A program made the position numbers and the translations under genes. Shown here piece by piece: positions 14,487 through 54,625 of a DNA stretch of 64,000 nucleotides; the stretch's first letter is position 1, and every line of letters starts with the position of its first letter. Origin of the DNA: Pholiota molesta (Eukaryota > Basidiomycota > Agaricomycetes > Agaricales > Strophariaceae); NCBI GenBank assembly GCA_014925825.1, contig JACGCK010000030.1:124001-188000 (forward strand). Reading direction: 5' to 3'. The notes beneath the pieces were generated by a model that worked only from the letters and a program-made list of their open reading frames with translations, ran no database searches and was not told where the DNA came from.

Positions 14487-17400
14487 AAGGCGTCAGCCTT
14501 GTCTGTTAATATTATGCATGAAATTGTGGGAGTTGCCCGGATAAAAATATTGCATCCAGAGTGGGAACTGCCAGGGCGCAGCCACCTCACCTAGCTGGCT
14601 TTGAATATTTTCCGCTCATTTCTGGTCTCTCTGCTGCTCACTAGTGGCAGTGCTACCTCGACACCATGCTCAACAGTGTCAAGCAGTGCTCGACACCATT
14701 GTCAGGGTCATCCCAAAAAGGAAGCCATCAAAAATTTTCCAAAAGAAGAATGACAAATTTGTAAGCTGTTTTTCCCCATCATTTGTCAGCACCTCAGCAT
14801 CTATCATTAGATTTGACCCATTTTGGGACTTTCTGCTCATTGGCCCATCAAATATGCCATCAAGGACCAAACACATGACCTGGTACCTAACCACATGACC
14901 ACACATGACTGCAAATGAGGCAGGGACCCTCCTAGGGGTGGGAAATGCCTAAAATAGCATTTTCCCAATATCATTGGAAATGCACCTGGGTAGCTGGTGC
15001 ACCCTATATGGGAGCCACTGAGACCATATTATACCAAAAGACGCGGAATTAAATTCTAAATCCACCTGTGAAAGAATCATAGTGATAGCTTCATTGGTTC
15101 GGGCCCTAGAAGCGAATTGCTATTTGGAATAAATAAGCGCACGCATTGATGGCTGCTTTCCTCCGCAACCGCTGGGTCGTTTTCCATGATCAAAGCTGCT
15201 GTCTGTAGGTATTAAAAGTGCGCTTCGAACGCGTTCTTGAACATAATTTTACGTCCGTTCCTCGCTCCGTAAAACGCTCCGGATATATTTGCGCTCACAC
15301 CGCATTAGCGCCGGCTACGCTTCCATAATTTGCGCGCATATTATATCATAAAATAGGTTAATAAAACACCTTTCTAACGGTACCCTACTCGTGTTGATTG
15401 GACAACTCTCCGAGGCCCTATAAAGGAAATGGTCGTTTGTGAATAGAATATTAACCGCGGATCGCGCTGGAACGCGCGTAGGTACGTTGGATTCTCCTGA
15501 ATTTACCGGATTTAACGACACCCTGATTATAGGGATCAGAGGCCGGGAAAGCACTGAACTGGACATGGGGATGGGCTGGATATTGCTCTGCTGGCCGGAA
15601 AATGCTATTTTTAGCGCTGCCGAGCGCGGCCCCACCCAATCCGGGCATGAAATGGTGGCACTCTCCCCCTCCCCCTCATATTGGAAATTCATTTCCTCCC
15701 TCAATTCCTATGCAATTACTTCGTTCTTTTTTCTAATATTTAATATAAATATGTTACTATGCGCCTATAGCATTTATACACCACTATAATACATGCAGCA
15801 TTTGTTATTTCGATATCTCTGTATTTTGGACACTGCATTTGGAGTTTTCACTGTAGTTATGATGCTTATTGGCACATATAGAGCGGTAGAAAGCTAGAGG
15901 CAAGTACCTACTACAATTTCTGGTAGTTTAAAAGTTACCTGGATCTTTTCCTATAGCTCCACACCCATGAAGAGAGACATCACTGTATATACTCCTTGAT
16001 AAATACATATCTCAGCCAATACTGTAGCTATAACCAAGTTCAAGCAACCATTAGAGTATTAGACATGTCTTCTTTCGTTCTGCCACTCAACAATTCTCTT
16101 CTCAATGCATTTTATTGGCCATATGACAAGAATAGTTAAATATAGCAGAAATAGAGGTATTCTGCCTATAGCAATTCACATAACCATTCTAAAATTCTGT
16201 AGAGCTGGGATATTATAGCTCTCATCAATATCTACGATTAGAGATAGGCCGGAAAGAATTAGAGTGAGTGAGTGGGAAGATATGGTGGAAACATTCTACT
16301 GAAACATGATTTAAACATGTCTATGATAAGTAACATAGATAGCCTTGACCTAGTCCGATGTTTTGAGTACTAATTCCACCATATATTTCCACACACTTAC
16401 TCTATTTCCTTCCGGCCTATCTTGAATTGAAGGTATTAATGAGAGCTATAACATCCTACCTCCATTGAATTTTAGAGTGCTTATGTGAATTGCTATAGGC
16501 CAAATACCTCTATTTCTGCTATATCTCAGCATTCTTGTCATATGACCAATGAAATGCTCTGAGAAGAGAATCTTGAGTAATAGAAGTAAAGAAGACATGT
16601 CTAATATTCTAATGCATGCTTTACTTGTTATAGCTACAGTATTGGTTGAGATATGGATTTATCAAGAGGATATACAGTAATGTCTCTCTTTATGGGTATG
16701 GAGCTATAGGACAGTATCCAGGTAGCTTTTAAACTACCAGGAGTTGTAGTAGATACTTACCTCTAGCTTTCTACCGCTCTATATGTGCCAATAAGCATCA
16801 TAACTACAGTGAAAACTCCAAATGCAGTGTCCAAAATACAGAGATATCGAAATAACAAATGCTGCATGTATTATAGTGGTGTATAAATGCTATAGGCGCA
16901 TAGTAACATATTTATATTAAATATTAGAAAAAAGAACGAAGTAATTGCATAGGAATTGAGGGAGGAAATGAATTTCCAATATGAGGGGGAGGGGGAGAGT
17001 GCCACCATTTCATGCCCGGATTGGGTGGGGCCGCGCTCGGCAGCGCTAAAAATAGCATTTTCCGGCCAGCAGAGCAATATCCAGCCCATCCCCATGTCCA
17101 GTTCAGTGCTTTCCCGGCCTCTGATCCCTATAATCAGGGTGTCGTTAAATCCGGTAAATTCAGGAGAATCCAACGTACCTACGCGCGTTCCAGCGCGATC
17201 CGCGGTTAATATTCTATTCACAAACGACCATTTCCTTTATAGGGCCTCGGAGAGTTGTCCAATCAACACGAGTAGGGTACCGTTAGAAAGGTGTTTTATT
17301 AACCTATTTTATGATATAATATGCGCGCAAATTATGGAAGCGTAGCCGGCGCTAATGCGGTGTGAGCGCAAATATATCCGGAGCGTTTTACGGAGCGAGG

Positions 17401-18193
17401 AACGGACGTAAAATTATGTTCAAGAACGCGTTCGAAGCGCACTTTTAATACCTACAGACAGCAGCTTTGATCATGGAAAACGACCCAGCGGTTGCGGAGG
17501 AAAGCAGCCATCAATGCGTGCGCTTATTTATTCCAAATAGCAATTCGCTTCTAGGGCCCGAACCAATGAAGCTATCACTATGATTCTTTCACAGGTGGAT
17601 TTAGAATTTAATTCCGCGTCTTTTGGTATAATATGGTCTCAGTGGCTCCCATATAGGGTGCACCAGCTACCCAGGTGCATTTCCAATGATATTGGGAAAA
17701 TGCTATTTTAGGCATTTCCCACCCCTAGGAGGGTCCCTGCCTCATTTGCAGTCATGTGTGGTCATGTGGTTAGGTACCAGGTCATGTGTTTGGTCCTTGA
17801 TGGCATATTTGATGGGCCAATGAGCAGAAAGTCCCAAAATGGGTCAAATCTAATGATAGATGCTGAGGTGCTGACAAATGATGGGGAAAAACAGCTTACA
17901 AATTTGTCATTCTTCTTTTGGAAAATTTTTGATGGCTTCCTTTTTGGGATGACCCTGACAATGGTGTCGAGCACTGCTCGACACTATTGAGCACAGTGTT
18001 GAGCACTGGAGCAGAGTGGGCAGCAGGAGCACATCCACTGACCACCATAGACCACTGGCCTAACGTGGAAAATCTTCAGACTCAGCTTGGTGGAGTGGCT
18101 GCGCCCTGGCAGTTCCCACTCTGGATGCAATATTTTTATCCGGGCAACTGCCACAATTTCATGCATGAGACTAGCAGACACTGGTGAAGGCGT
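14487..18193. repeat. 7-bp target-site duplication AAGGCGT
   Basis: AAGGCGT at 14487-14493 and again at 18187-18193 directly bounds the palindromic element. It would be 8 bp with one mismatch if the next base is counted. Confidence 0.75.
14494..18186. mobile_element. 3.7-kb foldback (long inverted-repeat) element
   Basis: The two halves are inverted copies of about 1.8 kb around a spacer of roughly 80 bp near 16,295-16,372. Identity is zoned. The outer ends (left to about 14,680, right from about 17,985) have diverged. The middle of each arm (about 14,690-15,898 and 16,763-17,975) looks identical, and the inner 400-500 bp has diverged clearly. Arm termini begin CAGCCTTGTCTG on the left and, read inward on the other strand, CACCAGTGTCTG on the right. 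Both continue ATGCATGAAATTGTGG, GTTGCCCGGATAAAAATATT and GCATCCAGAGTGGG. Open frames of 116-129 codons occur as mirror pairs (for example 15439-15789 and 16871-17221). They are broken in the 28-kb copy, so I treat them as chance frames and the element as non-autonomous. A degraded copy lies at 26,974-29,494. Confidence 0.85.
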
Positions 18194-18631
18194 TCTATAC
18201 CGTTCTCTTCTCTCTCGCCTGAGCAGCTGGAGATACATTTTGCGGCCGCCGTCGACGCAAAAAATGCCCTACGATTGCGAAAATCGGTGGTAGCCGTTGA
18301 TATAAGCGATAGCTTGGAACAGCTCCTTCCAAAGCTAGCAATGTATGAAGAAGATGGGCAGATTGTTAAATCCGCCTTTCAGGACATCGACCTAATCAAG
18401 GAGGAGTGCAAGCGCAGAAAGTTATCGCCGAACTTTTTCGCTCTAGAAAATTTTCGCGAGATACTTCCCTCGCATACGCCATCGGTAATAGAGATGCATC
18501 GCAAACTATTCTCTTCCATGCAAAACGTATTGGAACACAGGGTTGGTGCTCAGCGGACTGCAGCGCAATTTTTAAAAGATCCACTGGCACTCAAAGAGCG
18601 CCGTTTGCCCCATTTGACATGCCAGCGCTAG

Positions 18632-19321
18632 ATCACCCATCTAGCTTTTCTACTCTGTAACGTACCCTTCCTTTTGTTTGCTGTAGGGCAGCGCATCACT
18701 CATTACTTTTTCTTGCCAGCACAGACCCCATCCTATTAGGGCAACCGCAGCCATGTGTGCTGGAGCTTTCTACTTAGCTGCCCACGCCCTTCCAGTGCTT
18801 TTGGCCTTGGTGGCTTCATGCGCTTTCATTTATTTTAGAGCATTTTCCTCCCTCTCTTGGACCCAAATCAATGTGCTTTTAGCATTTCAGCCTCCAAATC
18901 TGCTGTATGTAGCAACATATTTATCATCCTGCACCAATTGCATTATTTTCACACATACAACCCTGCCGCACATTATCATGATACGGTACTCTCTATTTAT
19001 CATTGAAATATTGGAAAACTCAGTCACATCCGAGTCAGCGCATCGTTATATGATGAGTGCAGTGCACTGGGTTTGTTGCCGAGCATGGTGACTCGGTGAG
19101 CTGCACCGTCGTGCCCAACGCAGCGATCATAGGGTGAGCGTCTTTGTCTTCGTCATGCGCGATGTTGTTAGTGTGAAGCCATTCGTTCCTCCGGGGTGCT
19201 CAATGCAGGAGGCGAGCTGTGAGGACAGGCGCATCCAGCGATGTGAGGAGCTGCGGGGCCAGGCGGCCATCGAAGACACGCCGACGGAGGGAGGCAGTCG
19301 TTGTCCAGCTTGGGGGTGGCT
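18632..19321. other. Intergenic stretch
   Basis: One open frame at 18,753-19,091 (plus) encodes a hydrophobic run but has no splice partners or recognisable domain. Nothing else supported. Confidence 0.4.
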
Positions 19322-21400
19322 TCAGCCATAGACGCTAGATTTCTATATGAAACCCTGGTAGTTACCTAGTAGCAGTGATAAACCCTCACCGGGAGTTACC
19401 TAGAGGGTCTTTGAGCAACGGGATTGGCTGATGCTGTAGGGGGAGGCGGGAGGGGCTGTAGGTCACATGTGGGTGAGCGGGTGATGCCATTTAGTGCCGA
19501 GGATGCCGTGGGGGGTGGCGGGATGGGTACAGATACGTAGGGCGCTGTGGATGGCGGTGGGGCGGGGGCGGGCGCTTGGGGCTGCAGCCTAACACATGTA
19601 AACAACGCCGGATTTGATGCTCGGGGGGCCGCGCTCGCTGTAGGGCGGCGTCGGGGGCGTTTTTGAGCGGGAAAAAAAGGCGGTATGTATATAAATAATA
19701 TATGCACCTAATGCCACCGTTTGCGCGCCTAGGGGAGGGCGGGAAGGGGTGGATTCGGAGGGGGGCTTATGGATGACGTTTGGGATCAATTAAATCAATT
19801 CTATTATTGGCATCAGATGACGCACTTAATTAATCCATATCTATCATTGGCTTCGGATGACGCACTGATTATTGGACATGGGGGGCACTGCCTAACATAT
19901 ACAAACATCGCTACGCGCGATGCTCGGGTGCCGTGCTCGCCGCAGGGTGGCGTCGGGCGGATTTTTGGGCGGGAAAAAAATTTAATATATAGATTATATT
20001 ATCTAAGTTGAATACAATACGTGGGGGCGAGCGAGTGGAGGGGCGGGCAATTGCTTGCGCCCTGCTCCCCCCTGCCGACCTCGCTCGCGCCCGTATCCCA
20101 TGCATGGCCCTGCCTATACCCGCTGGCAGCCGCTACCTCCGCCGCCGCCGTCGTCATCAGCCATCATGCTTGCTTGGGCCGTTGTTGTCCTCGGTGGTCG
20201 GCGTCGTGCTGGCCTCGTTGGCCGTCCGTCATCCTTGCTGGCAGCTGTGCGTGCTTGCTGTCCTCACTGGTGGTTGTCGTCGCTCGTCGTGCTGTCGCTA
20301 GCCGCCGACGTCCTCGCTGGCCATCACGCAGCCATAGACGCTATATTTCTATATCAACAGTGGCTAACTACCCAGTTACAAGGATACATCCCCACCGGAA
20401 GTTACCCAGTGGTCTTTTAGCAGGGGATTTGGTGCTGGTGGCCCGGAAAAGCCGCAGGGGTGTATTAGACACCCAAAAGGGAGTGGGTGATAGTTATTAG
20501 GTGCCGTGTATGCCGAGAGGGGTGGCAGGGATGGTGGGGGCGCCGTGGATGGGGCGGGGGCGGGGCGCGCGCTCGGGGCTGCAGCCTAACACACGTAAAC
20601 AATGCAGGATTTGATGCTCGGGGGGCCGCGCTCGCTGTAGGGCGGCGTCGGGGGCGTTTTTGAGCGGGAAAAAAAGGCGGTATGTATATAAATAATATAC
20701 GCACCTAATGCCACCGTTTGCGCGCCTAGAGGAGGGCGGGAAGGGATGGATTCGGAGGGGGGCTTATGGATGACGTTCGGGATCAATTAAACAAATTCTA
20801 TTATTGGCATCAGATGACGCACTTGTTATTGCGCCCGCGACGTTCGGGATCAATTAATCCATATGATTGGGACCCGTTGCCGGCGTGGGAGGCACTACCT
20901 AACATTTACAAACATCGCCGAGCGCGATGCTCGGGTGCCGCGCTCGCTGTAGGGCGGCATCGGGCGGCGTCGGGCGCATTTTTGGTAGGGAAAAAATATT
21001 ATGTAGATTATATTATATACATTAACTACAGTACGTTGGGGCGAGCGAGTGGAGGAAGAGGGCAATTGCTTGCGCCTGCTCCCCCGCCCCTGCCGACCTC
21101 CCCTTTGCCGCGCCTCGCTCGTGCCCGTATCCCATGCATGACCCTACCCATGCTCGCTGGCCGCCGCCACCTCCGCGGCCGCCGTCATCAGCAGCCGTCA
21201 TCCTTGCTTGGGCCGTTGTCGTTCTCGATGGTCAGCGCCGTGCTGGCCTCGTTGGCCGTCCGTCGAACTCGATGGCCACCGTTCGTGCTTGCTGGCCGTC
21301 CGTCGTGCTTGCTGGCCGCCGTTCGTGGTCGCTGTCCTCGCTGGTGGTCGCCGGCGCTCATCGTGCTGTCGCTAGCCGCTGACGTCCTCGCTGGCCATAG
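19322..21400 (+). repeat. ~1-kb direct duplication inside the GC-rich complex
   Basis: Two units of about 1 kb follow each other, the second starting near 20,330. Shared landmarks are a CAGCCATAGACGCTA start, AGTTACCYAGTRG words, GGGCTGCAGCCTAACACA (19,580 and 20,577), GCGGGAAAAAAAGGCGGTAT (19,660 and 20,667), GGGGGGCTTATGGATGACGTT (19,769 and 20,759) and a CCCGTATCCCATGCATG block (20,090 and 21,125). A shorter inverted copy lies at about 24,365-24,830. Confidence 0.8.
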
Positions 21401-22049
21401 CGTCGCTGCTGGCTGTGACCCTCGCTGGCCGTCGTCATCCTCCGGGGCCGTGGTCGTTGCTGGCCATGGTGGTGGTAATCGATCTAGAGCCGGCCCACAT
21501 CCCTCGTTGGAGGGGAGGGGCACACGGCGAGGGGTAGGTGGGGGCGCTGTCGAGCAGGAGAGCCGGACCATCCCTCCAACGAGGGATGGGAGGGCCCAAA
21601 AAGGGCGACACATCACCTGGAAGGAGGAGGATGTGGTGGTGGTGGTTATAAGGTGGGAGGGGTAGTCGAGGGGTGGCGGTCAGCGCAACGGCGGGGGCGA
21701 GACTCGCCCCTACCCGCTCGCCTGCGCGCCTGCACCCACCCGCCCTCGTTCGCACCCGCGGCCCCTCACGTCCACCCTCCCGCCCCCTGGTCCTCACTCG
21801 CTGTCTGCTGTCCTCCCTAGTGGCGCCGTCCCCGCTAGCTGGCCGCCGTGCTCACTGGCCGCCATGCTCGCTGGTCGGCCGTCCGTCGGTATGGGCAGCC
21901 TCGGCTAGTTACAAAGCCGGCCCACATCCCTCGTTGGAGGGGAGGGGCGCACGGCGACTGGAAGGTGGCGGTGGTCGGCAGGTGGGAGTGGTGGGTGAGC
22001 AGGGGAGGCGGCGGCAGCGAGCACGGTGAGGAGGGTGATAGACGGGTGG

Positions 22050-22120
22050 AAAGCGAAATCAACCAAGATTTGGTTGATTTGGCTTTCAAGCTCCGCTTGA
22101 ATCGATCGGCAATACAATTG
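22050..22120. repeat. Three consecutive hairpins at the left border of core 1
   Basis: In order: ATCAACCA-loop-TGGTTGAT, TCAAGC-TCC-GCTTGA, and CGGCAAT-ACA-ATTGCCG. The same three-hairpin string, with sequence changes, marks the left border of core 2 near 25,420. Confidence 0.8.
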
Positions 22121-22159
22121 CCGGGCGTTTCGCCATTGTCGTCGACGACGATTACGACG

Positions 22160-22790
22160 TCAATAGCTAGTTTAAAATATGATTTCACCATGTATTAACT
22201 TTCTAATAAGTATGTATAATATTAATATAGAATATGAGCGAAAAAGAACCGTTGAAACCATCAATATTCAATATTCTACCAAAACCGTGGTGATCTTCGT
22301 CATTCGGACAGAATGAAGATCGATTTTTTGAAGATGATATACATTAGTTATACCGCTTAAAACAGTGTGAATAGACAGTAGACAGTCTATAGAGCAGTAA
22401 TTAACTTTTTACCGGAGGATATTTCAATGAGGCCATTGGTATCTCGTATTCTAGCAAAACCGTGGTGATCTTCGTCTTAAGAAGATTGGTGTTTTGAGAA
22501 TGTTCTAGATTAGTTATGTTGCTAAAAACAATGTTTATAGACAGTAGATAGTCCATATAGTATATTTTAATTATTTACTGGAGGAGATCTCAATATTAAC
22601 AACTTGTACATCGATTTGCAGTAGGCATTGGTCAAGGAAGTGATAGATTTTTAAAAGATCTCTTGCCTCAAAGTAAGTCAAGTAATATTCTATTGCTTAG
22701 ACCACGATTCCTCGGACCGGAGCACATTGGAAATTTAATATAGTTATTCTAAATTATCCCTGGGTACTTATTTTCTTCATATATCATAAA
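22160..22790. repeat. AT-rich core 1 with two ~175-bp internal repeats
   Basis: A block beginning AAAACCGTGGTGATCTTCG occurs at 22,281 and again at 22,456. Both copies later share ACATTAGTTAT or AGATTAGTTAT and ATAGACAGTAGA words. No gene is seen. The core is followed by a hairpin-forming GATCAACCATGTT palindrome near 22,895. Confidence 0.7.
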
Positions 22791-22892
22791 TTGACGTCGA
22801 CCGGGACGTATTGAACGACGAGCGCGAGTTTGGCAGGTCCCGGGCCGGACGCTCCAGCCAATCGGGTGGTCGCGGGAATCGCCGGCTACAGC

Positions 22893-22922
22893 GATCAACC
22901 ATGTTCAACATGGTTGATTTCA
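22893..22922. repeat. Perfect inverted repeat at the right border of core 1
   Basis: ATCAACCATGTT followed by its reverse complement AACATGGTTGAT. The equivalent site of unit 2 is at about 26,285-26,310. Confidence 0.8.
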
Positions 22923-23389
22923 CTCCTGTACCACCACCACATCCTCGTCGCCTCCCTCTGCGCCGCCTCCCTCCTCCCTCCGCCCTCTCCTCGTTGCTTT
23001 TGCTCGCCGCCGCCCTCGACGACCCAGCCGTGTGCCCCTCCCCTCCAACGAGGGATGTGGGCCGGTTCTGGAATCTGGTACCGCGGGCGACGGGCGTACA
23101 CCACCGCCATCCATCCTCTCTCCCCCTCCTTCGCGCTGCCGCCCTCTCGTGCCCACCCACGTCTCATCGTGTGCCCTCCCCTCCAACGAGGGATGTGGGC
23201 CGGCTCCCTGCAGCGGGACGCCACGGATTCAGCAACGCCCCAAGCACCCAGGCACCCTCACCACCCACTGTTCCCTGTCCCCATCGTTTCTGGCGAGCAC
23301 GACGAGCGCTGACCGCGGCGGAGGACGACCACAGCGCATGACGGATGGCAACCACGCAACGGGCGGCGGGCGGCGACCCAGCCGAGCGA

Positions 23390-23840
23390 CAGACGGCGGG
23401 CAAGCACGACAGCGGGCGAGGACGAAGGTCGGTGAGCACGACAGCGGGCAAGCACGACAGCCGGCAAGCACAACAGCGGGTGAGCACGAAGGACAGCGGG
23501 CAAGCACGACGGCGGGCGAGCACGAAGGACGGGGAGCGCGACAGCTGGCAAGCACGACAGCTGGCGGGCACGACGGCGGGCGAGCACGACGGCGGGCGAG
23601 AACGACGGCGGGCGAGAACGACGGCGAGCGAACAGGACGGCGGGCGAACAGGACAGCCGGCGAGCACGACGGCGGGCGAACAGGACAGCCGGCGAGCACG
23701 ACGGCGGGCGAACAGGACAGCGGGCGAGCACGACGGCGGGCGAACAGGACGGCGGGCGAACAGGACGGCGGGCGAACAGGACGGCGGGCGAACAGGACGG
23801 CGGGCGAACAGGACGGCGGGCGAGCACGACAGGCGCGAGG
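23390..23840. repeat. GC-rich minisatellite, 16-bp core unit
   Basis: Repeats of ACGGCGGGCGAACAGG (16 bp) and variants with GAGCACGAC. At least six near-perfect consecutive units lie at about 23,735-23,825. The 16-bp period makes all three frames open on each strand, which explains the long spurious open frames. Confidence 0.85.
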
Positions 23841-23844
23841 CGGG

Positions 23845-23945
23845 CGGCTGCAGGTGCCAGGCAGGCGGGCGGCTGTAGGTGCCAGGCAGGCGGGAGGCTG
23901 CAGGTGCCAGGCAGGTGGGCGGCTGCAGGTGCCAGGCAGGTGGGT
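23845..23945. repeat. 25-bp tandem repeat, about four units
   Basis: Units of the form GCGGGCGGCTGCAGGTGCC followed by AGGCAG, with single-base variants. Confidence 0.85.
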
Positions 23946-24364
23946 GCAGGCGCGGTGAGGGGGGACGGCCAGCTAGCAGAACGCACGGCCGGCCAGCGAG
24001 CACAAACGACGGCCAGCGAGCAGAAGGCACGGCCAGCCAGCGAGCACCGAGCACGACGGACGGCCAGCGAGCACGGCGACCACGATGGACTGGATGGCGA
24101 GGGCGGTGGACGGTGGGGGCAACGGATGGCGAGGGCGGCAGCCACGGACGGGGGAGCAAGGACGAGCGTTCGCTCGTCCTATCTCTCCCCTCCTGTCTAT
24201 GCCTGTTGTATCTAATATATTCAATGCAGTAGTGTATACTTAATGAAATAAATGTTGTATATCAAGTAAAATCCACGGGAAAACGAGGAAAGCAACGGGA
24301 ATCGCGAGCAGGCGCCCGCGCTCGTAGCCGAAAACATCTAAAATTAGTTATTGCCCGCTAAATA

Positions 24365-24830
24365 TAGAGCGTCATCCATAAGCCCCCTGCTGAATCCACC
24401 CCTTCCCGCCCTCCCCGACGCGCGGAAACAGTTCCATTAGGTCCATACATTATTTATATACATTCCGCTTTTTTTTCCCGCCCCAAAACGCCCTCGACGC
24501 CGCCCTACAGCGAGCGCGGCCCCCCGAGCATCAAATCCTGCATTGTTTACACGTGTTAGGCTACAGCCCCAAGCGCCCGCCCCGCGCCCGCCCTCATCCA
24601 TAGCACCCTACACATCCCGCTACCCTTTTTGGGATACCCGGCACATAAACACCATCACCCGCTCATCTAGCCATCAATTTATTATCCCACGGCGCACCCA
24701 GCATGCCCCCCAAATCCCCTGCTAAAAGACCACTGGGTAACTCCTGGTGGGGATGTATCCTTGTTACTGGGTAGTTACCCACTTTTCATACATAATAGTA
24801 GCGTCTACAGGTGCATCACGTCGCTGGCTG
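24365..24830 (-). repeat. Inverted copy of the 19.3/20.3-kb terminal block
   Basis: On the opposite strand this matches the TTATGGATGACG, GCGGGAAAAAAA and CTGCAGCCTAACACA landmarks of the direct duplication. It is followed by the CTGCTAAAAGACCACTGGGTAAC block and the TAGCGTCTA end that match 20,330-20,425 reversed. Confidence 0.8.
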
Positions 24831-25419
24831 TGACCCTCGCTGGTAAGAGAGCCAGACCATCCCCAGACCATCCCTCCAACGAGGGATGGGAGGGCCCAAG
24901 GAGGGCCACACGACATCTGCAAGGAGGAGGATGTGTTGGTGGTGGTTAGGAGGTGGTAGGGGTAGTCGAGGGGTGGCGGCCAGCACAACGGCGGGGACGA
25001 GACTCGCCCCTACCCGCTCGCCCTGCATGCCTGCATCCACTTGCCCCTCATTTGCACCCGCGGCCTCTCACGTCCACCCGCCCGCCCCCTTGTCCCCACT
25101 CGCTGACCGCTGGCCTCCTCGCTGGCGCCGTTCCTACTCGCTGGCCGCCGTGCTTGCTGGTCACTGGTCGCTGGTCGTCCGTCCGTCGGTATGCGCGGCC
25201 GCGGCAAGTTACAAAGCCGGCCCACATCCCTCGTTGGAGGAAAGGGGAGCCACACGGCATAGGGTAGGCGGGGCGCCGTCGAGGCAGAGAGCCAACCCAT
25301 CTCTCGTTGGAGAGGAGGGTCGCACGGCGAGGTGGTGGTGGTGGTGGTGATTGGCAAGGGAGAGGGTAGTCGAGGGGTGGTGGCAGCGGCGGCGAGCGTG
25401 GTGAGGCGAGCAAGCTGAA

Positions 25420-26973: not shown

Positions 26974-29494
26974 ACCAGCCTTGTCTGTTAATATTCTACA
27001 TGAAGTCATGGCTGTTACCCGGATAAAAATATTGCATCCAGAGAGGTAACTACCCACCTCACCTAGCTGGCTTTGAATAATTCTGCCCATTCCTGGTGCT
27101 CGCTGCTGGTCACTGGTGGCAGTGCTACTGCTCACTGTAGCTGCCACTGCTGCTCACTGTGCTCAACAGTGCCAAGCACTGCTCGTCGCTGTTTTCAGGG
27201 TCGTCCCAAAAAGGAAACAATCAAAAAAAGTCCAAAAGAAGAATGACAAATTTGTAAGCTTTTTTCCCCATCATTTGTCAGCACTTGACCATCTATCATT
27301 AGATTTGACCCATTTTGGGACTTTCTGCTCATTGGCCCATCAAATATGCCATCAAGGACCAAACACATGACCTGGCACCTAACCACATGACCACACATGA
27401 CTGGAAATGAGGCAGGGACCCTCCTAGGGGTGGGAAATGCCTAAAATAGCATTTTCCCAATATTATTGGAAATGCACCTGGGTAGCTGGTGCACCCTATA
27501 TGGGACCCACAGGGACCATATTATACCGAAAGATGCGGAATTAAATTCTAAATCGACCTGTGAAAGATCATATGGATAGCTTTATTGGTTCAGGCCCTAG
27601 AAGCGAATTACTATTTGGTAAATAAGCGCACACATTGATGGCTGCTTTCCTCCGCAACGCTGGGTCGTTTTCTATAATCAAAGCAGCTGTCTATAGGTAT
27701 CAAACGCGCGCTTCTAACGCGTCTTGATTATAATTTTCCGACCATTCCTCGCTCCGTAAAACGCTCCGGATAAATTTGCGCTCGCACCGCATTAGCGCCG
27801 GCTACGGTTACCATTCGCGCGCATATTATATCATAAAATAGGTTAATAAAACACCTTTCAACGGTACCCTACTCGTTGTGATTGAACAACTCTCCGGGCC
27901 CTATAAAGGAAATGGTTGTTGTAAATAGAATATTAACCGCGGATCGCGCCGGAACGCGCATAGGTCGTTTGATTCTCCTGAATTTACCGGATTTAATGAC
28001 ACCCTGATTATAGGGATCAGAGGCCGGGAAGGCACTGAACTGGACATGGGGATGGCCTGGATATTGCTTTGCTGGCCGGAAGATGCTATTTTTAGCGCTG
28101 CCGAGCACGGCCTCACCCAATCCGGGCATGGATTGGTGGCACTCTCCCCCTCCCCCTCATATTGGAAATTCATTTCCTCCCTCAATTCCTATCCAATTGC
28201 TTCGTTCTTTTTCTAATATTTAATATAAATATGGTACTATGGCCTATAGCATTTATGACCACTATAATACATGCAGCATTTGTTATTTCGATATCTCTGT
28301 ATTTTGGACACTGCATTTGGGGTTTTCACTGTATTTATGATGCTTATTGGCACATATAGAGCGGTGGAAAGCTAGAGGTAAGTACCTACTACAATTCTGG
28401 TAGTTTAGAAGTTCCTGGATACTGTCCTATAGCTCCAACCCATAAAGAGAGACATCACTGATATACTCCTTGATAAATCCATATCTCAGCCAATACTGTA
28501 GCTATAACCAAGTTCAAGCATCCATTAGAGTATTAGACATGTCTTCTTTAGTTCTGCCACTCAACAATTCTCTCTCAAGCATTTCATTGGTCATATGACA
28601 AGAATGGTTAAATATAGCAGAAATAGAGGTATTCTGCCTATAGCAATTCACATAACCATTCTAAAATTCTGTAGAGCTGGGATATTATAGCTCTCATCAA
28701 TATCTACATTATAGATAGGCCGGAAAGAATTGAGTGAGTGAGTGGAAAGATATTGTGGAAACATTCTACTGAAACATGATTTAAACATGTCTATGATAAG
28801 TAACATAGATAGCCTTGATCTATCCGATGTTTTGACTATTAATTCCACCATATATTTCCACTCACTTACTCTATTTCCTTCCGGCCTATCTTGAATTGAA
28901 GGTATTGATGAGAGCTATAACATCCTACCTCCATTGAATTTTAGAGTGCTTATGTGAATTACTATAGGCCAAATACCTCTATTTCTGCTATATTTAACCA
29001 TTCTTGTCATATGTCAATGAAATGATCTGAGAAAAATTTTTGAGTGAAGAACTAAAGAAGACCTGTATAATACTTAATGCACGCTTTAACTTGTTTATAG
29101 CTACAGTATTGGTTGAGATATGGATTTATCAAAGAGGATATACAGTAATGTCTCTCTTTGTGGATATGGAGCTATAGGACAGTATCCAGGTAGCTTCTAA
29201 ACTACCAGGAATTGTAGTAGGTACTTGCCTCTAGCTTTCTACTGCTCTATATGTGCCAATAAGCATCATAAATACAGTGAAAATCCCAAATGCAGTGTCC
29301 AAAATACAGAGATATCGAAATAACAAATGCTGCATGTATTATAGTGGTGGATAAATGCTATAGGCGCATAGTACCATACTTATATTAAATATTAGAAAAA
29401 GAACGAAGCAATTGCATATGAATTGAGGGAGGAAGTGAATTTCCAATATGAGGGGGAGGGGGAGAGTGCCACCAATCCATGCCCGGATTGGGTG
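26974..29494. mobile_element. Second, degraded copy of the foldback element
   Basis: The left arm starts CAGCCTTGTCTGTTAATATT and follows the 14.5-kb element through GCATCCAGAG, CACCTCACCTAGCTGGC, the GGGACCCTCCTAGGGGTGGG block and the GGTTAATAAAACACCTTTC block, with many small indels. The spacer lies near 28,740-28,850. The right arm is recognisable from about 28,850 but stops abruptly at GCCCGGATTGGGTG (about 29,494), so the outer ~1.2 kb of the right arm is missing. The open frames seen in the first copy are broken here. Confidence 0.8.
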
Positions 29495-32400
29495 ACACGG
29501 CGGACATTCAACTGTCAAGTCGGGCTGCCGCTTGCGCTGTTAGGTTATGCAGATATTTCCGGCGAGTATGCATTTGCCAGGTCACAATAATACCTGTCAC
29601 GCTGTTCTGTTTCTGCTCTCTTCCTCACTTTCTTCCGTTCATATCAAGACGCCTGAGCGAAATTTTGTACCCTACACCCTCCCATTTCTGAGGATAATGA
29701 TCCAGTGCATGTTCGGTGCCGAATTTTTGCAGATAGCATGACGTAGGGTCAAATGTGAGGCCTTGAGGCCTTGAGGCTTTGAAGTTTTGAAGTCCGTTGC
29801 AGCCAAGCATTCGGGACTTTCTCTAATACTTTCTAAGTCCGACGCACGCGTTCGCTGCTCCAACATTTCCACATTCCACTCTCATCGTGCAGAGGCGCAC
29901 GACACCATCGTCATTCATTCCCAAATTTGCCCTTTTTGCGATGGGTTTTCGAGTTTCCACGCGGCTTTCTAGGGATAGCACCTCGCACTCGCCACCGCAC
30001 AACGGCGTGTCTACCGGCGTACATCTAAGCGTCATCTCGAGGTTGTGCACTGGCAGTCCAGGACCCAGGACTCGCGCGTCATTCTCAAGGTCCCTATCCC
30101 TCTGTACGTACACCTCCAACCTGTCCCATATTCGATAGTATTGCCGCTCCCCTTGTATTTGCTAACCTATTGTTGCATGCAGATTCCGCTGCCGCTTTTC
30201 GCGTTCCTTAAGCCGCCACTTTCGTTCCCTATCGACATCCCCCGTCATCTCCAAGACCCTTCCATTCTGTCTGGTCCACCGCCCGCCTCCGCTCCAATCC
30301 CGAACCCAAATCCATGGCGATCCCTTGTCAACAGCTATCATCTGGCGGCCACGCCGCACATCAGGCATGCGTGCGACATCAGCTCGTACGAGCACCACAG
30401 CGCGCAGAACCCAGGTGTGTGTATCTCAACGCGTCTCTCCTCCTCTCAGCGGTACGCTTACAGCAGTCAGCTAGGCATCACGGTGCCGTACGGACACCGG
30501 AGCACAGTCAGCAGCAAGATGATAACGCTGGGAGACGAGACGATATACAGACACCGACACGACGACGCTGGGCTTCGGATGGACGACTCACGATGCGGCT
30601 AGGACGACAACGACTTGACTCACAAACGGGTATGGAACGGTGCGCCGCTGCGGGGAAATGTCAGTGAGCGCTACATTGGGTTCATCGTATACAAATTACT
30701 GACGGCGATATAGCTTTGAGCACGATAGCGCCGAGCCCCTGGATCTCCATGAGTGACGGACGCGTCACTGCAAAACACGGGAGCACGGAGATATGGAAAT
30801 GCTCGTCCGCAAGGCACCGATGACCTTCGAGGACGAGATGGGCAAACTGCCAAGTGCGGACCGACGATCGATGTCGCGGGAGATCTAGTGGATCCCTGGC
30901 AGCCAATATCAACGTAAGTACTCTTTCTCTGACATGAATTCTTATTTACTTACCTTGGCCATACCAGTCCAGCAGTCAATTTCAACCGCGCACAACACAA
31001 TGTTGCACATGCACGCAATGAAAACGCATTAGACGATTTATTTTGCACTTAGCTACTATCCTAATTCAACGACGCCCTCCAATACGTTTCATATAGGCTC
31101 ATGTAACAAAAAAAATGCGAGTTCATGACTTCACTCGCTTGTGAACTCACCAAATTTCTATTTGCTAACAATTTACGATATGCGGATCTCGTCTATAGAA
31201 GACTTCAAGTACCAGCAACTTCAGCATTCGCCACAACAGAGCCCATGACCATGACATCCGGTCTCCGCAGCTAGGCACTTTACTTTTAACTACATGGCGG
31301 GGCGCACCGCTCGCGACAAACACGTCGACAGCCGTCATCCACCATCCAATCATCGACCGCCCTTGACAATGAATCCACAGTGCAGAACGGACAGTCAAGG
31401 ACGACGATGAGAACGAAATAAGGGCGAGGAAAACGAAGATAAGGATACAGAGAAATGGGGGCACCTACAACCTTCCTGTATGCCTTTTTTTTCGTTGTTA
31501 TCGCCTTTATTCTAACGTTTCTTGCCAGCACGCGAATATGAAGGATTCTGCGATCCTGCTCAACTTTGCGATGTCACGAACGCGAGTTTTATGGTTTAAA
31601 AGCGACTTGAGCCCACGTCTAGGCTCACTTTTGTTTTCCCCCAAGTACAATCCCTGCCCATCACCTGGTCTGGCAAGACGACGACGCCCAATCGACGCCC
31701 ACGCCCTGCGAATCGCCACGTCTGAAGATGACGAATCCATCACAGCCGGCGTTCGGCGACGCAGGATGCGTCCACCACCTTCCAACTGCAACGATATTCG
31801 CGACGAGCGGGGCGTCGACAGCCCGACCGCCAACCGCCAACGACGCAGAGCCTACGGCCGACGAAGACGACGAGAACGAAACAGCGCCAACCACACTACC
31901 CTCATCCAGCCGCCGTCGCCATGTTCTCGCTAGCTCGAGCACCTATGAGCCCTAACGGCTCTGGGACTCCTGGCAAATGATGCAAGCCCTTATGCGGCTT
32001 GCATCGAATCGGACGCTATCATGCGGCGTTCGGCCGATGGGTTACCACAACGAGGAGCTTCACCCGACAACGAACATACCACCTCCTCTCCCGGTGGCCC
32101 GTCCAACGACGCGACAACGATATTCCCTCCCCGCGTTGTACCTGCCGCCAGCGCTGCTTCACTGCGCCCAAGTCCGCCCATTTCCCTGCAAAACACTGTG
32201 TACGACGACGAAGAGTCCGTCAGACCCGGGAGGCGTCGGCGTTGCTGGCAGAAACATCAACGTGAACGCCGTTATATTGTTCTGAAAGTACCACCTGTAG
32301 CTCCTCGCACCCGGCGTTTTCCAACTGCAGCCGCATTTGCGTCGTGAAAGCCACTTCCACTCCGCCTACTACCATTTTCAAGTATTACAATCGATAAACC

Positions 32401-43850: not shown

Positions 43851-44176
43851 CAGGGCTCATGAAATCAGAGATGGCAGTAATACTTGACCCATAAAGTTGT
43901 GAAATCAAATTAAGGCTTGAATACCCAATCCTCTGAATGGAAGCTGGAAATAGGGTTGCAGATTCAGATGTTCCGCATAAGACTTGAGTCAAAGTGCCCC
44001 GGAATGATCATGAGCGCTTGTTTTTCCAAATTTGGAAATCAGGTTTGTACGCATGTGTTTAACAGGCGAATACAACTGTTCGAGATGTAGAATATATTCG
44101 GTGAAATCATACATGCCTCGACGTACATGTAATCGATTCAAATTCTAAAGTATGTAGGGTCCAAGATCCTAGCATC

Positions 44177-44183
44177 TATAAAA
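44177..44183 (+). promoter_or_regulatory. TATA box
   Basis: TATAAAA, 74-80 bp upstream of the ATG at 44,257, with CTCAGTCTATCTGACC between them as a possible transcription start area. Confidence 0.5.
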
Positions 44184-44256
44184 GCAGCCTTTTAAGCACA
44201 CGTTAAATCTCAGTCTATCTGACCATCGCTGTAAAGCTTCCCCAGGTCTTAGTCCC

Positions 44257-49693: not shown

Positions 49694-51205
49694 TCAATTC
49701 ATTCCTTCTCGCAGCCTCTTCAACCCTGTTTGGATGCTCTTCACATACACCTCAACAGGAATTATCGTCCCCGTAAGGTCCACTACAACCATGCGTTCAC
49801 GCATATCCTCCATGTCTTCGCTCGTTGCTTGTAAAGCCTGCAATGCCGCAGCAACATGGACGAGAGCCTGCTTTCTATATCTATCCCACCTCTTCAACAG
49901 GAACAAACGGCACTCATAACTTTTCAAAGATTTCCTATTTCCACCAAGTTTTGTCCAAAAGTCTTCGAGAAGATCGGATTTGGCAGTTGATATAGACCAC
50001 TCTTCATGGGCAACAACTACGTGCAGTGTTGCAAGTCGTTCTTCGAGATTATTCAGGTGGCGGAGGTTTTGTTCGACTTCGACAATCAGCTGTTCCATGT
50101 TGGCAGAAAAGACGTTCATGGCTCGCGTGACAACGTCGCCGATCCTGGAAGACCAGGAAGAAGGTTTGTTTGCCCGTGCACTTGCTATTGATCGAAGGGC
50201 GTAATTGTTGACTGCCATCATACTGAGCCAGGAACACTTTATAAACCATGATCATCAACAAAGATAATACAGTACTCACTTATCAAGCGCTCCACCAACC
50301 TCGGTGGCCAATTTTTGGAGACCCCGTTCCGCTTTTCCCACCTGAATGGAAATTTTGTATAAAGATACGGCCAGGTCGTCTTTCGCTTTCAAGTCTATGT
50401 CATGGATGCAAGTTATGAGGTCTGTTGCTATTATTTCTGCCATCTTGATTTCCAAAGACAATGCTGAGCCTGCAACTATGTCTCCTAGGAAAAGTTCAAA
50501 TGACTGTGTTTGCACATCCATCACCTTCAAGTAATCGGCCCATTTTGGAGCCAAGTTTCCGCCTGAGTTCGTCAATAATGAAGAACTAGGATTAGAATTA
50601 CACAACAACGTGGAAGATATGCCTGGAATGATACAGAGTGGTTCAAAGGCACGGCCGAGAGCTTTTGATAAGTAGCCCGTCATAGCCATCGAAAGGAAGC
50701 AGGCGATGCAGAACACAGGTGGCCATCGAGTGAGGTGACTGATGGTTTTCAATATGCTGAACACATACTGACCGCCAAATTTGACAACTTCAGATAAAGC
50801 GCTGAACACGAGGTCGCTGGTTTCACCGGAATTTGCCTGTGCGTCTATGAGAGGTTCGAGGGATGGAATGGAGGTTGGAATGTAGGCCAGTTTTCGAGAA
50901 GTATTCCCGACTTTAGCCGCCTTGCTTGCACCTCCTTTACGCGGCGATGTTTGAAACCTGACAACTCTCTCTATGCAAACGGCTGAGGGGGCATCAGCGA
51001 AAGCTGATTGTCGACGTGCCTCTTGTTTGTTGTCGGTGCAGTCAACCCATTCGCCGTCTTCCTCGCTCAGTAGTCTTTCACCCAACTTCTTCCTCTGAAG
51101 GCAGTTGTCAAGGTCGCGACTGGTCGCTGTCGTTGAATATGCGACCTTGGTGTTTAGCTCCAGTGTGTTTAGCTCCAGTGTGCCCATGTTGGGAGAGCAT
51201 AACAA
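49694..51205 (-). CDS. Basidiomycete membrane-anchored coiled-coil protein
   Basis: Two exons (51205-50280 and 50222-49694) flank a 57-nt intron, 484 codons. The N-terminal 100 residues are hydrophilic. A strongly hydrophobic stretch near residues 165-185 (WPPVFCIACFLSMAMTGYLS) is a likely membrane segment. The rest is helical with long coiled coils: LFLGDIVAGSALSLEIKMAE, IQVGKAERGLQKLATEVGG, then VEVEQNLRHLNNLEERLATL and a GGNRKSLKSYECRLFLLKRW motif followed by HVAAALQALQATSEDME. I recall this two-part layout (one membrane span, long coil, GGNRK-L motif) from uncharacterised agaricomycete proteins. A repeated LELNT near the N-terminus means several start codons are possible. Confidence 0.78.
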
Positions 51206-51564
51206 TTGTATGATCGGTCAGTCCTTTTGAGCTAGTGCAGCTCCTGCAAGCTCCTAGCCTAACAACGCTCTAACTTTTTTGTACCTCGAGAACATGGGTA
51301 GCTATGCGACGCCTAGTTTCCTTATAGGCCCTGGCAATGTAGTACATGTACATTGTACAATAGCCATTCATGTTGTGATGTTTGGTTTTGCTATTGCCAT
51401 TGTATTCTCGACTCGCCGACTGCAGACGATGTGGGCGAAGATGGCTTGCAGCCGGCAGCTTTACACATTCTTGAATTAGATTTGGAAAAATGATTTGTCA
51501 TTATGTACTCGATGTAATACTATAAGCACGATACATCTCCTCATGCCTTATTTCCTCTAGATCT
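51206..51564. other. Intergenic gap between two minus-strand genes
   Basis: No gene seen. Likely promoter of the coiled-coil gene and 3' flank of the WD40 gene. Confidence 0.45.
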
Positions 51565-52836
51565 TCAAGTTGGCTTCCACCTCCACATCATGATGCGACT
51601 TTTACCACCGGTCATGGTAGTTAATGCGGCTGCAATTAGAACGCTGCCATCCTTCAGATCACAGGCCTGCATTTTGTGTTAGTTCGTCGAGCACTGGATG
51701 ACTGTAATTGTAGGTATCATACTGTAATCATCTCCACCATGACATCTTGCCCAATCTTGATCCAATGGAGTCGTCTTCCTGATTTGCAATCAAAAATGTA
51801 AATTCTCCCACTGTCGCTTGCCCACACGATTGCGCGAGACTCGTCCATAAGAGCGACACCCTTTACACATGTTTCCTTGCAATATTGTAGGGGGAAATGT
51901 TGCAGGAGTTTTGCGCTGTCAAACGCATATAGGTCAACGCCTTTCCCAGCCTTATCGATGGCACATCGACGGTTATCAGTGTCAATTGCAGCATGTTTGC
52001 TGTGAAATAATGAAATAATTCCAATTGGTAGGTCAATCTTGTTGTGTGCATAACAACTTACATAGGATTCCTGAGTGACAAATGGGGACCCTCGTAATCT
52101 CCACTATGGGCCCATCGACTCCTATGAATAATTCACGTTTGATCATGAAACTTTAATTGCAACGCGACTAATGGACTCACACAAATCCATCTTGCTCGAA
52201 AATCACGAGATCATCGTAGTCGAGCACAATCCTTTTGGGGAAAATAATGTCCTTCCAATATGCATTGGACCATGCGGTTACTAGGTCAAAGTTCACGTAG
52301 TCCTTGAACATGCAAACCGTGATTACTTCTTTGGAAGTAGTAATGGCAACAAAAGCCTGCTCGTTGTAAATCCCGGCCGCGATCTGGATGACTTCTGCAT
52401 CGCGATCGATGAGAATGGAAGAGATCGCACGAAAGTCACCCTGCTCTTGATATGTTAGAATTTGGCCATGGGTGACTTGTTAAATTTGGTCTGCACACTT
52501 ACCTTGGGATAACGACGTTGAACCATTAATAACCATCCCATGGCGTTTCCGTACGCCAGAGTTTGAATGCTCTCATCCAGAGAAGGAACCCAACACATGG
52601 CGGACACCTGGGAGCATTCGTATTCAATGTCGGGTGGCAGTAAAATCAGGATGTCCTCGTTGGTGTCCACATTGCGCATTTTGACCCCGTCCACACCTAT
52701 CACCTTCATTAAGAATATCTTCAGAAATAATGACATAGAGCTCACCGCCGCGGGCAATTATGCCACCGTCCGGTGAGATTGCAATAGCTAGTGTTCTATT
52801 AGAATATTCGATGCTCGTTTCTTGAAGACGTAGCAT
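51565..52836 (-). CDS. WD40-repeat protein
   Basis: Six exons (52836-52746, 52696-52503, 52440-52181, 52121-52062, 51999-51723, 51666-51565) join with introns of 49-62 nt, phases all consistent, 327 codons. WD40-like blades are visible: LAIAISPDGGIIARGG then GVKMRNVDTNEDILIL (blade 1), QVSAMCWVPSLDESIQTLAY with LMVQ (blade 2), a middle blade ending LVIFEQDGF, VKGVALMDESRAIVWASDSG then RIYIFDCKSGRRL (late blade), and a closing SRIMMWRWKP strand. The family builds a beta-propeller protein-interaction platform. Many agaricomycete paralogues of this type exist and their partners are unknown. The ATG at 52,836 is the first after the likely promoter. Confidence 0.85.
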
Positions 52837-52868
52837 GATGATAAGTTCTGGTTCCAATTCAGCCAGTA

Positions 52869-52880
52869 ACCTATATATAC
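52869..52880 (-). promoter_or_regulatory. Possible TATA box of the WD40 gene
   Basis: GTATATATAG on the minus strand, about 35-45 bp upstream of the ATG at 52,836. Confidence 0.4.
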
Positions 52881-53561
52881 TTAGACCGTTTTTTGTTCAC
52901 ATCCTTTGAATTTGTTGAGTACGAGGCTACAGTACCGTTATAATTATGATGCAATGTTTGTCAGTTAATGAATTTCTTTCATGGATGAACGACGGATGGG
53001 GATGACCAACAATACTTCTATTAGCACCTCATTTTGTTCGCATAGATTATTATTAACGGCTGAATCGAAGGGGATTGCAGAATGGTAAATAAGATAGATC
53101 TAGAGTAAGGGTTCGATTAAATAAGGTGTTTGGATATATGGTGGAGCATCGCCTAGTACTTATTATTTGCTGCTACAGAAGGTACAATATGCCGTTTTTT
53201 CATTTATAAGGATACTTAGTATGCATGGGGATAAGTATAAGGGAAGGTATGCCGTTTGAAGTCTGAGGTCGAGCGACGTATGATACATATAAGTATAGGA
53301 ACATAATATTAACATAATACAGAATACAATAAACCAGGCACAAGGATCCCGGATAGTGACTGATTACCATCATAATTATAATGACCATTTGCAAAGCAGA
53401 CCGATGACTTTAAGCCTTGCATTTCAATCTGTAATTATAATGGGATTTCATGCCAACATCATAGCTTCGAACATTTCGAAGCCCCATCCTGCCTCCGTTT
53501 CAAAGTTACTAAACACAATACACATGTACATGTACATGTTGCAATTAAAGTCCATAGTTAA
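52881..53561. other. Intergenic stretch
   Basis: Contains the repeat at 53,128 and ACATGTACATGTACATG near 53,522. No gene supported. Confidence 0.45.
53128..53275. repeat. Dispersed repeat shared with 42.2 kb
   Basis: Same block order as 42,190-42,325, same strand. Confidence 0.6.
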
Positions 53562-54525
53562 TTATATCAAAGATGTCGATAAAAGGTGTCGAAGGGCGCC
53601 ATATGTGTTGTCCTGCAAATCATCAAGGTAACTAGTGGAAGAGACGCGCAGAGCACCAGCTTGCATCCATTTAGGGCTACTGAACATTTGTGCTAACTGA
53701 TGCAAGTGCATGCATTCAAAGCCTTCAGCTGTAGTTTGGAAATGCAACGTCCTCATAAAATGCAGTCCGTCCAAAATTTCAAGGAAGCGCCGAAGGAGGT
53801 CTGGAAAGATGCAATGGCATTCAATCCTGCTTGCCTGATCATGATCACAGGAGCATTGGGCATCATTTGGGAAATGGACGTTCTGGCCGTGCCAAGGCAT
53901 CAATGTCTGCAGGGTGAGGGATTCCAATGAAGATGACCTGATGGTTGACAGGGCGTTGCAGACTGCTTTCAAGTCGTGTGTTCTGAATGACAGTGAGCGC
54001 AGGTTGGTCAAGTGACTAAGATCTATGTCTGTTGCAGAATGTTAAATGAGTACTGCTGTTTGGGCAATAACAGATCTAAATGCGAATACCTTCATTTGAA
54101 AGATCCTCGCAAATAAAGCGATCGTAAGCTATGCCAATGCTCAAGCGCTTCATGGTTTTCGAATTTGCTTCGAGGAAAGACTTCAATGCTTTGATTGAAC
54201 CCCATCCTTTGTGAGACGAGCGGGATATCAACAGATCCAATGTCTCTATCCTGGTAAAAGGAGATCCATTAAGGTTGTTGAGCCCGTCGAAGAATAGTTC
54301 GGATGGCAGCAATCGCAGAGAAAGGTTCCTAATGTTGTGGAAAGATGATCCGGACGTGTTGCGAGGTAGCTCTATGACAGTCCGGTCAACTGTGTATACA
54401 GCAAGCGTGTGAAGACAAGGAAAGGATGCAATGAGGTCCCAAGCATTCTCGCTAAACGTAGGCCATGCGTTGAATGAGAAATGGGTGATATTCATGAGGG
54501 TGTGAGTTGAGGTCCAAGATACACC
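53562..54525 (-). pseudogene. LRR/F-box-type gene truncated at its 5' side by the KDZ element
   Basis: Two exons remain: about 54525-54090 and 54028-53562, joined by a 61-nt in-phase intron. The protein fragment has leucine-rich strands in the style of fungal F-box/LRR proteins: IASFPCLHTLAVYTVDRTVI, NIRNLSLRLLPSELFFDGL, IETLDLLISRSS, then NLRSLSFRTHDLKAVCNAL, SLESLTLQTLMPW and MRTLHFQTTAEGFECMHL. A Cys/His-rich CSCDHDQASRIECHC insert is present. There is no start codon before the KDZ terminus: the frame runs straight into the ACCAGTGTC end at about 54,526-54,534. The missing N-terminal exons, including any F-box, should lie on the far side of the element. Confidence 0.65.
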
Positions 54526-54625
54526 AGTGTCCGTTAACTTCATGCATGAAATCCCGCTAGTTGCCCAGGAAGACTTATGCATCCAGGCCGCTAACTACGC
54601 CTACACAGCCACCTCACAGTCACAT
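54526..54625 (+). repeat. Left terminal sequence of the KDZ element
   Basis: Begins ACCAGTGTCCGTTAACTTC, then ATGCATGAAAT, GTTGCCC, TTATGCATCCAG, AACTACGC and CAGCCACCTCAC. The same words in the same order start the foldback elements at 14,494, 18,186 (reversed) and 26,974. It interrupts the LRR gene on one side and lies 124 bp from the transposase stop codon on the other. Confidence 0.7.

What the first reader, a model, noticed from the sequence alone, without database searches (positions are those of the whole stretch)
14494..54625. Foldback elements share their termini with a KDZ transposon 36 kb away
The ends of the 3.7-kb palindromic element (both ends), the left end of its degraded copy at 26,974 and the left border of the KDZ element (54,526) carry the same ordered words: (A)CCAGTGTCYG or CAGCCTTGTCTG, ATGCATGAAAT, GTTGCCC, GCATCCAG and CAGCCAC. 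Non-autonomous long-palindrome elements driven by a KDZ transposase would be a new kind of KDZ derivative as far as I know.
Basis: partly seen in the sequence, partly recalled or inferred. Interest (0 to 1): 0.78.

Follow-up and report, generated by a model that had tools for sequence, protein, structure and literature searches.

The report
Palindromic hitchhikers of KDZ transposons
Two large, gene-less inverted-repeat elements in this fungal-type genome carry the same ends, and the intact one the same 7-base footprint, as nearby KDZ transposons, so they are very probably parasitic elements moved by the KDZ enzyme.

Summary
The 3,693-bp palindrome (14,494-18,186), its truncated relative (26,976-29,495) and the KDZ element (left border 54,522) share about 90 bp of terminal sequence. 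The KDZ element runs past the window to 66,388 and has a perfect 7-bp target duplication. A second KDZ element (C46, 18.2 kb) has the same ends, a 7-bp duplication and 1,886-bp inverted repeats 98.6% identical. A third (C163) begins with 1.2 kb homologous to the arms of the window's palindrome. Of 26 end pairs examined, 17 have exact 7-bp duplications, one 8 bp, eight none. At least 28 elements of the 3.7-kb family and 13 of a 4.4-4.8-kb family have paired arms. In five family-A elements the arms average 98.5-99.9% identity from 180 bp inward while different copies average 92-98%, and the central loop occurs in both orientations: arms recombine with each other. A sub-family with unequal arms shows the same inequality in all 9 two-armed copies placed, so palindromes spread as units. 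Best reading: non-autonomous, Galileo-like foldback derivatives of Kyakuja-type KDZ transposons. Mobilisation by KDZ transposase is inferred, not shown.

The parts
14494..18186 (.). 3,693-bp palindromic element (family A), non-coding, arms 93% identical overall
   Evidence: self-alignment 7-3687 against itself reversed; longest ORF wholly within it 129 aa
14487..14493 (+). left 7-bp target duplication AAGGCGT
18187..18193 (+). right 7-bp target duplication AAGGCGT
14494..14608 (+). CAGCC-type end of the palindrome
   Evidence: alignment of 19 ends, 32 invariant columns
18072..18186 (-). CACCAG-type end of the palindrome
16291..16373 (.). central unpaired loop (about 83 bp), found in both orientations among copies
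   Evidence: arm extents, pairing of arms
26976..29495 (.). truncated second palindrome: one full arm plus part of the second (self-palindromic 28,113-29,495)
54522..64000 (-). KDZ element, part inside the window; continues to coordinate 66,388 (C224:190,388), 11,867 bp in all, 86-bp imperfect TIR
54515..54521 (+). left 7-bp target duplication CAAGATA of the KDZ element (right copy at 66,389-66,395, outside the window)
54522..54613 (+). CACCAG-type end of the KDZ element
   Evidence: 97% identical over 92 bp to ends of C345 and C411
56985..57386 (-). KDZ transposase domain, open frame (PF18758, E 9.5e-35)
57673..58410 (-). CxC2 cysteine-cluster open frame of the transposase gene (PF18803, E 8.5e-38)
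63291..63638 (+). open frame of a second gene region of the KDZ element; a similar frame occurs in C46 (by eye)
   Evidence: no Pfam match

Best explanation
The palindromes are non-autonomous foldback-type derivatives of KDZ (Kyakuja-like) DNA transposons. Shown: they have the same two unequal terminal sequences and the same 7-bp target duplications as KDZ-encoding elements of this genome; their arms are homologous to the terminal regions of such elements; a family with unequal arms has multiplied with that inequality kept. Inferred: KDZ transposase binds the roughly 100-bp ends and cuts and pastes the palindromes in trans; the first palindromes arose when a KDZ element with long inverted repeats lost its interior, for instance by aborted gap repair that switched from one repeat to the other; afterwards arm-to-arm gene conversion and crossing-over kept the inner arms alike and flipped the central loop, while the outermost bases stayed distinct.
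For: Shared ends: 32 of 134 alignment columns invariant over 19 ends from 3 KDZ elements and 7 palindromes. TSD: 17 of 26 end pairs exactly 7 bp, one 8 bp, both complete KDZ elements among the 17; chance about 2e-70 with equal base frequencies. Long-TIR KDZ: C46 carries 1,886-bp TIRs at 98.6%. Matched partners: C46 TIR to the palindrome C113 87.6% over 959 columns; C163 KDZ terminus to 3.7-kb palindrome arms 78-83.5% over about 1.2 kb; window KDZ ends to C345/C411 92-97% over 86-148 bp. After the window's own, C163 and C46 are the closest KDZ proteins (82 and 80%). Arms: means of five A elements 98.5-99.9% in each bin from 180 bp inward, versus 92.4-97.8% between copies. Loop orientation 7:7 in 14 A/B elements and 0:9 in the unequal-armed C family, Fisher p 0.014 one-sided, 0.019 two-sided. 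Unequal arms in 9 of 9 two-armed C copies placed (86-87% against 91-92% to the window arm). Literature: Kyakuja elements of Laccaria bicolor make 7-bp TSDs with 5'-CA..TG-3' termini (PMC12730594, section 3.2.1 read).
Against: 8 of 26 end pairs have no TSD (C615:844k, C64, C242, C607, C345, C127, C2, C113). Only two KDZ elements have both ends placed. No matching end was seen for most other KDZ genes. The published Kyakuja families are said to have no TIRs, whereas these have 86 bp and 1.9 kb. The arms of the window's palindrome match no complete KDZ element closely: C163 is at 79% to them over their outer 1.2 kb, and its other end is off the contig. The direction is open: a KDZ element could have gained long TIRs from a palindrome. 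End flavour relative to the transposase gene is opposite in C224 and C46/C163. Homogenisation is uneven: in C333 single bins fall to 95.7%, and in C78 the arms are identical already from 60 bp.
Confidence: 0.82

Rival explanations
1. The ends belong to another transposase (hAT, or a P/Galileo-like element, also a 7-bp-TSD foldback), and KDZ genes only sit inside such elements by chance.
For: 7-bp TSDs are known for Galileo and for hAT7 of rust fungi. hAT dimerisation domains are present in this genome, 51 matches.
Against: None of the 51 hAT matches lies in the two complete elements C224:178,522-190,388 and C46:238,722-256,912. No P-element match, but its control was silent, so this is weak. 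C163 and C46 are collinear over their KDZ genes and flanks, apart from about 5 kb present only in C163, as expected of one element and not of chance nesting.
Confidence: 0.06
2. The palindromes are assembly or segmental-duplication artefacts.
For: Long palindromes are prone to misassembly (general knowledge); 8 of 26 end pairs lack a TSD.
Against: At least 41 elements with facing arms on many contigs (28, 13 counted), near-constant length within a family, and exact 7-bp TSDs in 17 of 26 end pairs. The two ends differ in flavour.
Confidence: 0.03
3. The palindromes are mobilised by KDZ but did not arise from it: an unrelated long inverted repeat captured KDZ ends, and C46 later gained its long TIRs from a palindrome.
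For: The window's KDZ element has only an 86-bp TIR; the inner third of the A arms gave no match to the KDZ elements in hand in the listed alignments (searches list only the best pieces per pair).
Against: C163's terminal 1.2 kb, next to its KDZ gene region, is homologous to the arms; C46's TIR and the C72 arm are of nearly equal length (1,886 and 2,006 bp).
Confidence: 0.3

Closest known systems
Kyakuja lineage of KDZ transposons (Laccaria bicolor Kyakuja-1_LB, -2_LB; PMC12730594, section 3.2.1 read)
   Same: 7-bp TSD, 5'-CA..TG-3' termini, KDZ transposase
   Different: described there as having no TIRs and as coding, TET-bearing elements; here TIRs of 86 bp and 1.9 kb and many non-coding palindromes
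Galileo (P superfamily, Drosophila; PMC3573991, passages seen)
   Same: long TIRs, two-TIR copies without transposase, 7-bp TSD, chimeric copies lacking TSDs, conversion between TIRs suggested
   Different: other transposase superfamily and host; ends here come in two distinct flavours
Mutator/Foldback Tm1 (PMC3169594) and Tetris (PMC4079207), search listing only
   Same: foldback elements by their titles
   Different: nematode and fly hosts; Tm1 is a Mutator type
KDZ1-3 of Cryptococcus (PMC12810828, passages seen)
   Same: KDZ-CxC transposase, about 9-11 kb, transposition observed
   Different: TSDs of 4-8 bp, TIRs 139-241 bp; the paper contrasts its findings with hosts where shortened elements transpose

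Membership tests
KDZ/Kyakuja, non-autonomous member | terminal sequences shared with KDZ-encoding elements | tested here: met
KDZ/Kyakuja, non-autonomous member | same target-duplication length (7 bp) | tested here: met
   17 of 26 end pairs, both complete KDZ elements among them; 8 pairs without; 7 bp for Kyakuja in print
KDZ/Kyakuja, non-autonomous member | 5'-CA..TG-3' termini | tested here: met
   19 of 19 aligned ends begin with CA
KDZ/Kyakuja, non-autonomous member | mobilised by KDZ transposase | not testable with these tools
   needs an excision or transposition assay
KDZ/Kyakuja | no TIRs, as published for the Laccaria families | tested here: not met
   86-bp TIR in C224, 1,886-bp TIR in C46; the KDZ domain and 7-bp TSD still place them in KDZ
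KDZ, coding member (window 54,522-66,388) | KDZ transposase domain and CxC cluster | tested here: met
   PF18758 and PF18803
KDZ, coding member (window 54,522-66,388) | intact, expressed transposase gene | not tested
   the frames matched are open, but splicing and expression were not examined
Foldback-type element | long inverted repeats make up nearly the whole element | tested here: met
   four of four A-D elements read in full, arms 85-96%; F: C72 arms 2.0 kb with a 0.76-kb loop, C113 arms 1.29 kb with about 2 kb between
Galileo / P superfamily | P-element transposase in the genome | tested here: inconclusive
   PF12017 no match, but nothing rang in the controls
hAT | hAT transposase inside elements with these ends | tested here: not met
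   none of 51 matches lies in the two complete KDZ elements
MITE | short (under about 0.8 kb; limit recalled) | tested here: not met
   3.7-4.8 kb

The most novel reading that the evidence does not exclude
Making long palindromic derivatives is a regular by-product of Kyakuja-type KDZ transposition: three KDZ lineages of one genome each have a best-matching palindrome family. These palindromes persist for long by recombining arm against arm (conversion of the interior, flipping of the loop) while their outermost bases stay unequal, and they could feed back on their parents, for example as long hairpin transcripts that silence KDZ ends.
Probability: 0.3. Interest if true: 0.75.

Novelty: new variant of a known kind. 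Interest (0 to 1): 0.58.

Why it matters
KDZ transposons are reported from many fungi, but in the papers seen here only coding copies are described. If KDZ ends drive dozens of long palindromes, unclassified inverted repeats in such genomes can be assigned, the cis-acting ends of KDZ become testable with small reporter elements, and long TIRs are seen to have arisen in one more transposase superfamily, as in Galileo. Related families with and without arm homogenisation are a natural experiment on gene conversion in palindromes.

Tried and rejected
Zero-spacer palindrome: rejected, about 83 bp in the centre do not pair. Single flavour of end: rejected. Re-copying of one arm at each transposition as the general cause of arm identity: disfavoured, because the 9 two-armed C copies placed all show the same inequality; these copies were compared with the window arm, not with each other, and other elements with C-type ends (for instance C169) were not among the candidates scored. 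hAT or P transposase as owner of the ends: see the rivals. The border of the six-copy KDZ family around C226 was sought on one side and not reached; L006 (C400) did not align with them. C163's right end was sought and lies beyond its contig. The TET/JBP-like frame of C46 is a resemblance recalled from memory: Pfam gave 2OG-FeII_Oxy_3 at E 0.005, under its cut-off, a 185-aa piece gave no Pfam family and no solved structure; the KDZ frame matched no solved structure either. The place at 3,428-3,459 scoring 32 with the KDZ end: taken as chance.

Rows dropped: the A_C624 CACCAG-side arm was included but does not align; it and C64 (two CACCAG ends) were left out of the within-element means, leaving five elements. 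The tree contains the unalignable row and is not relied on. Loop orientation: of 28 elements, C555 and C264 could not be assigned, C64 is ambiguous, C21 and C607 are family D (one each way), leaving 14 A/B-like (C223 has a D-like CAGCCATG end but A/B-like arms; C85's second end was not seen) and 9 C; for C320 and C615:202,601 the flavour was read from the CAGCC end on the other side.
Full report
Setting. The window is C224:124,001-188,000 of a 65.6-Mb, 625-contig genome. It is not named; KDZ transposase genes with CxC2 clusters point to a fungus, which is inference.

Observation. In a scan of the whole window the next place, 3,428-3,459, also scored 32 over 34 columns without the terminal words; so 32 is what a 64-kb scan can give by chance, and the copy's membership rests on its 92% identity to the palindrome. 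The palindrome is 14,494-18,186 with arms 93% identical and TSD AAGGCGT. The relative at 26,976-29,495 is truncated. The KDZ element begins at 54,522 and ends outside the window at 66,388: 11,867 bp, an 86-bp TIR at 93%, TSD CAAGATA. It encodes KDZ (PF18758) and CxC2 (PF18803) domains.

Genome-wide. The inner end pattern finds 62 matches against 1 in the control, the CAGCC-type end 98 against 0, and the CACCAG-type pattern 125 against 0 (its 3-mismatch rows include CAGCC-type ends and the printed list was cut). Elements normally have one end of each flavour. Nineteen ends from three KDZ elements and seven palindromes share 32 invariant columns of 134. Of 26 end pairs examined for target duplications, 17 are exactly 7 bp, one (C29) is 8 bp and 8 have none. 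The exceptions include C64, with two CACCAG ends, and C2, which joins a 3.7-kb-family arm to an F-type end: they look like recombinants, as Galileo's chimeric copies without TSD do (PMC3573991, passages seen).

KDZ elements with these ends. C46:238,722-256,912 is 18.2 kb, TSD GCGATGG, and has TIRs of 1,886 bp at 98.6%. C163 carries the CAGCC end at 44,064, followed by 1.2 kb homologous at 78-83.5% to the arms of families A-D, followed by a KDZ gene region collinear with C46 except for about 5 kb; its other end is off the contig. After the window's own copy, C163 (82%) and C46 (80%) are the nearest KDZ proteins of the genome. So the three most related KDZ copies all have the end. For the next ones (C444, 72-74%, and copies at 60% or less) no end was placed. 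That is not evidence of different ends, nor is it evidence of the same ones.

Palindrome families. A-D: 3.7 kb, 28 elements with facing arms, four read in full. F: 4.4-4.8 kb, 13 with paired arms counted; two were read, C72 with 2.0-kb arms and a 0.76-kb loop, and C113 with 1.29-kb arms at 99.5%. K/E: C345, C411, C157, 3.8-4.2 kb, richer in G+C, inverted repeats eroded. Partners: F with C46 (C113, 87.6% over 959 columns), A-D with C163, K with the window's KDZ element (148 bp at 95-96% and 92 bp at 97%). The counts are lower bounds, since the searches score only the best candidates.

Arms. In five A elements (C224, C78, C333, C356, C615) the arms agree on average at 98.5-99.9% in each bin from 180 bp inward; the least alike is C333, with single bins down to 95.7%. 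Different copies agree there at 92.4-97.8% on average. In the outermost 25 bp CAGCC-side ends of different copies agree at 100%, CACCAG-side ends at 98.8%, the two sides at about 73%. At 120-180 bp the figures are 98.3, 77.4 and 67-70%; there C78 has identical arms, so conversion has reached further out in it. Copies thus differ from each other while each is nearly symmetric inside: the arms are homogenised within the element. The asymmetric central loop lies on the CAGCC side in 7 and on the CACCAG side in 7 of 14 A/B elements, but on the CACCAG side in 9 of 9 C elements; in C10, the one C element read in full, the arms are 85% alike (Fisher p 0.014 one-sided, 0.019 two-sided). My reading: arms that are alike recombine and flip the loop, unlike arms do not. 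Since the nine C copies show the same inequality (86-87% on the CAGCC side, 91-92% on the CACCAG side, to the window arm), palindromes transpose as units and need not be remade each time.

Mechanism. Shown: shared ends, shared TSD length, shared arm sequence, unit spread of family C, arm homogenisation in family A. Inferred: KDZ transposase acts in trans on the ends; the origin is loss of the interior of a long-TIR KDZ element. The origin is less certain than the mobilisation, because the window's KDZ element has short TIRs and no complete KDZ element in hand closely matches the inner third of the A arms.

Known or new. Kyakuja elements of Laccaria are reported with 7-bp TSDs and CA..TG termini but no TIRs (PMC12730594, section 3.2.1 read, other passages seen). 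Cryptococcus KDZ1-3 have TIRs of 139-241 bp and TSDs of 4-8 bp (PMC12810828, passages). The survey of Laccaria bicolor TEs holds neither 'palindrom' nor 'foldback' in its main text (PMC3411680, term search). A search for foldback, transposon and KDZ together found 0 papers. Searches on Kyakuja with terminal inverted repeats (4 papers) and on Zisupton with non-autonomous and inverted repeat (11 papers) showed no such element in the titles and abstract openings listed; most of those papers were not opened. Only open-licence PubMed Central papers were searched. I therefore call this a new variant of a known kind: foldback derivatives are known for P and Mutator elements, but I found none described for KDZ.

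Noticed in passing
G000:C224:120,892-121,690: A second KDZ gene about 2.3 kb left of the window, 48% identical to the window's in the transposase frame.
   Followed up: no
L091/L090, C46:246,945-247,760: Open frame in the C46 KDZ element resembling a 2OG-Fe(II) oxygenase (Pfam E 0.005, under cut-off); by recall like the TET/JBP enzymes of Kyakuja elements.
   Followed up: partly
L001-L005, L007 (C332, C226 twice, C259, C612, C62): Six KDZ copies 99.8-100% identical over 3.7 kb, a recently active but more distant KDZ family.
   Followed up: partly
L056/L087 (C2:614,575-620,241), L057/L055 (C64), L049/L043 (C615:844k): Elements or end pairs without target duplication, two of them with mixed or equal ends: possible marks of ectopic recombination between palindromes.
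   Followed up: partly
L027/L051 (C624:141,714-146,678): A palindrome 4.97 kb long whose CACCAG-side arm is interrupted from about 120 bp inward, apparently by an insert; its TSD is intact.
   Followed up: no
window 23,330-23,945 and 54,842-55,343: Dense internal repeats; the second lies in the 3' part of the KDZ gene region.
   Followed up: no
window 19,323-21,294 and 21,563-25,247: Further repeated blocks between the two palindromes, direct and inverted, about 80-89% alike.
   Followed up: no
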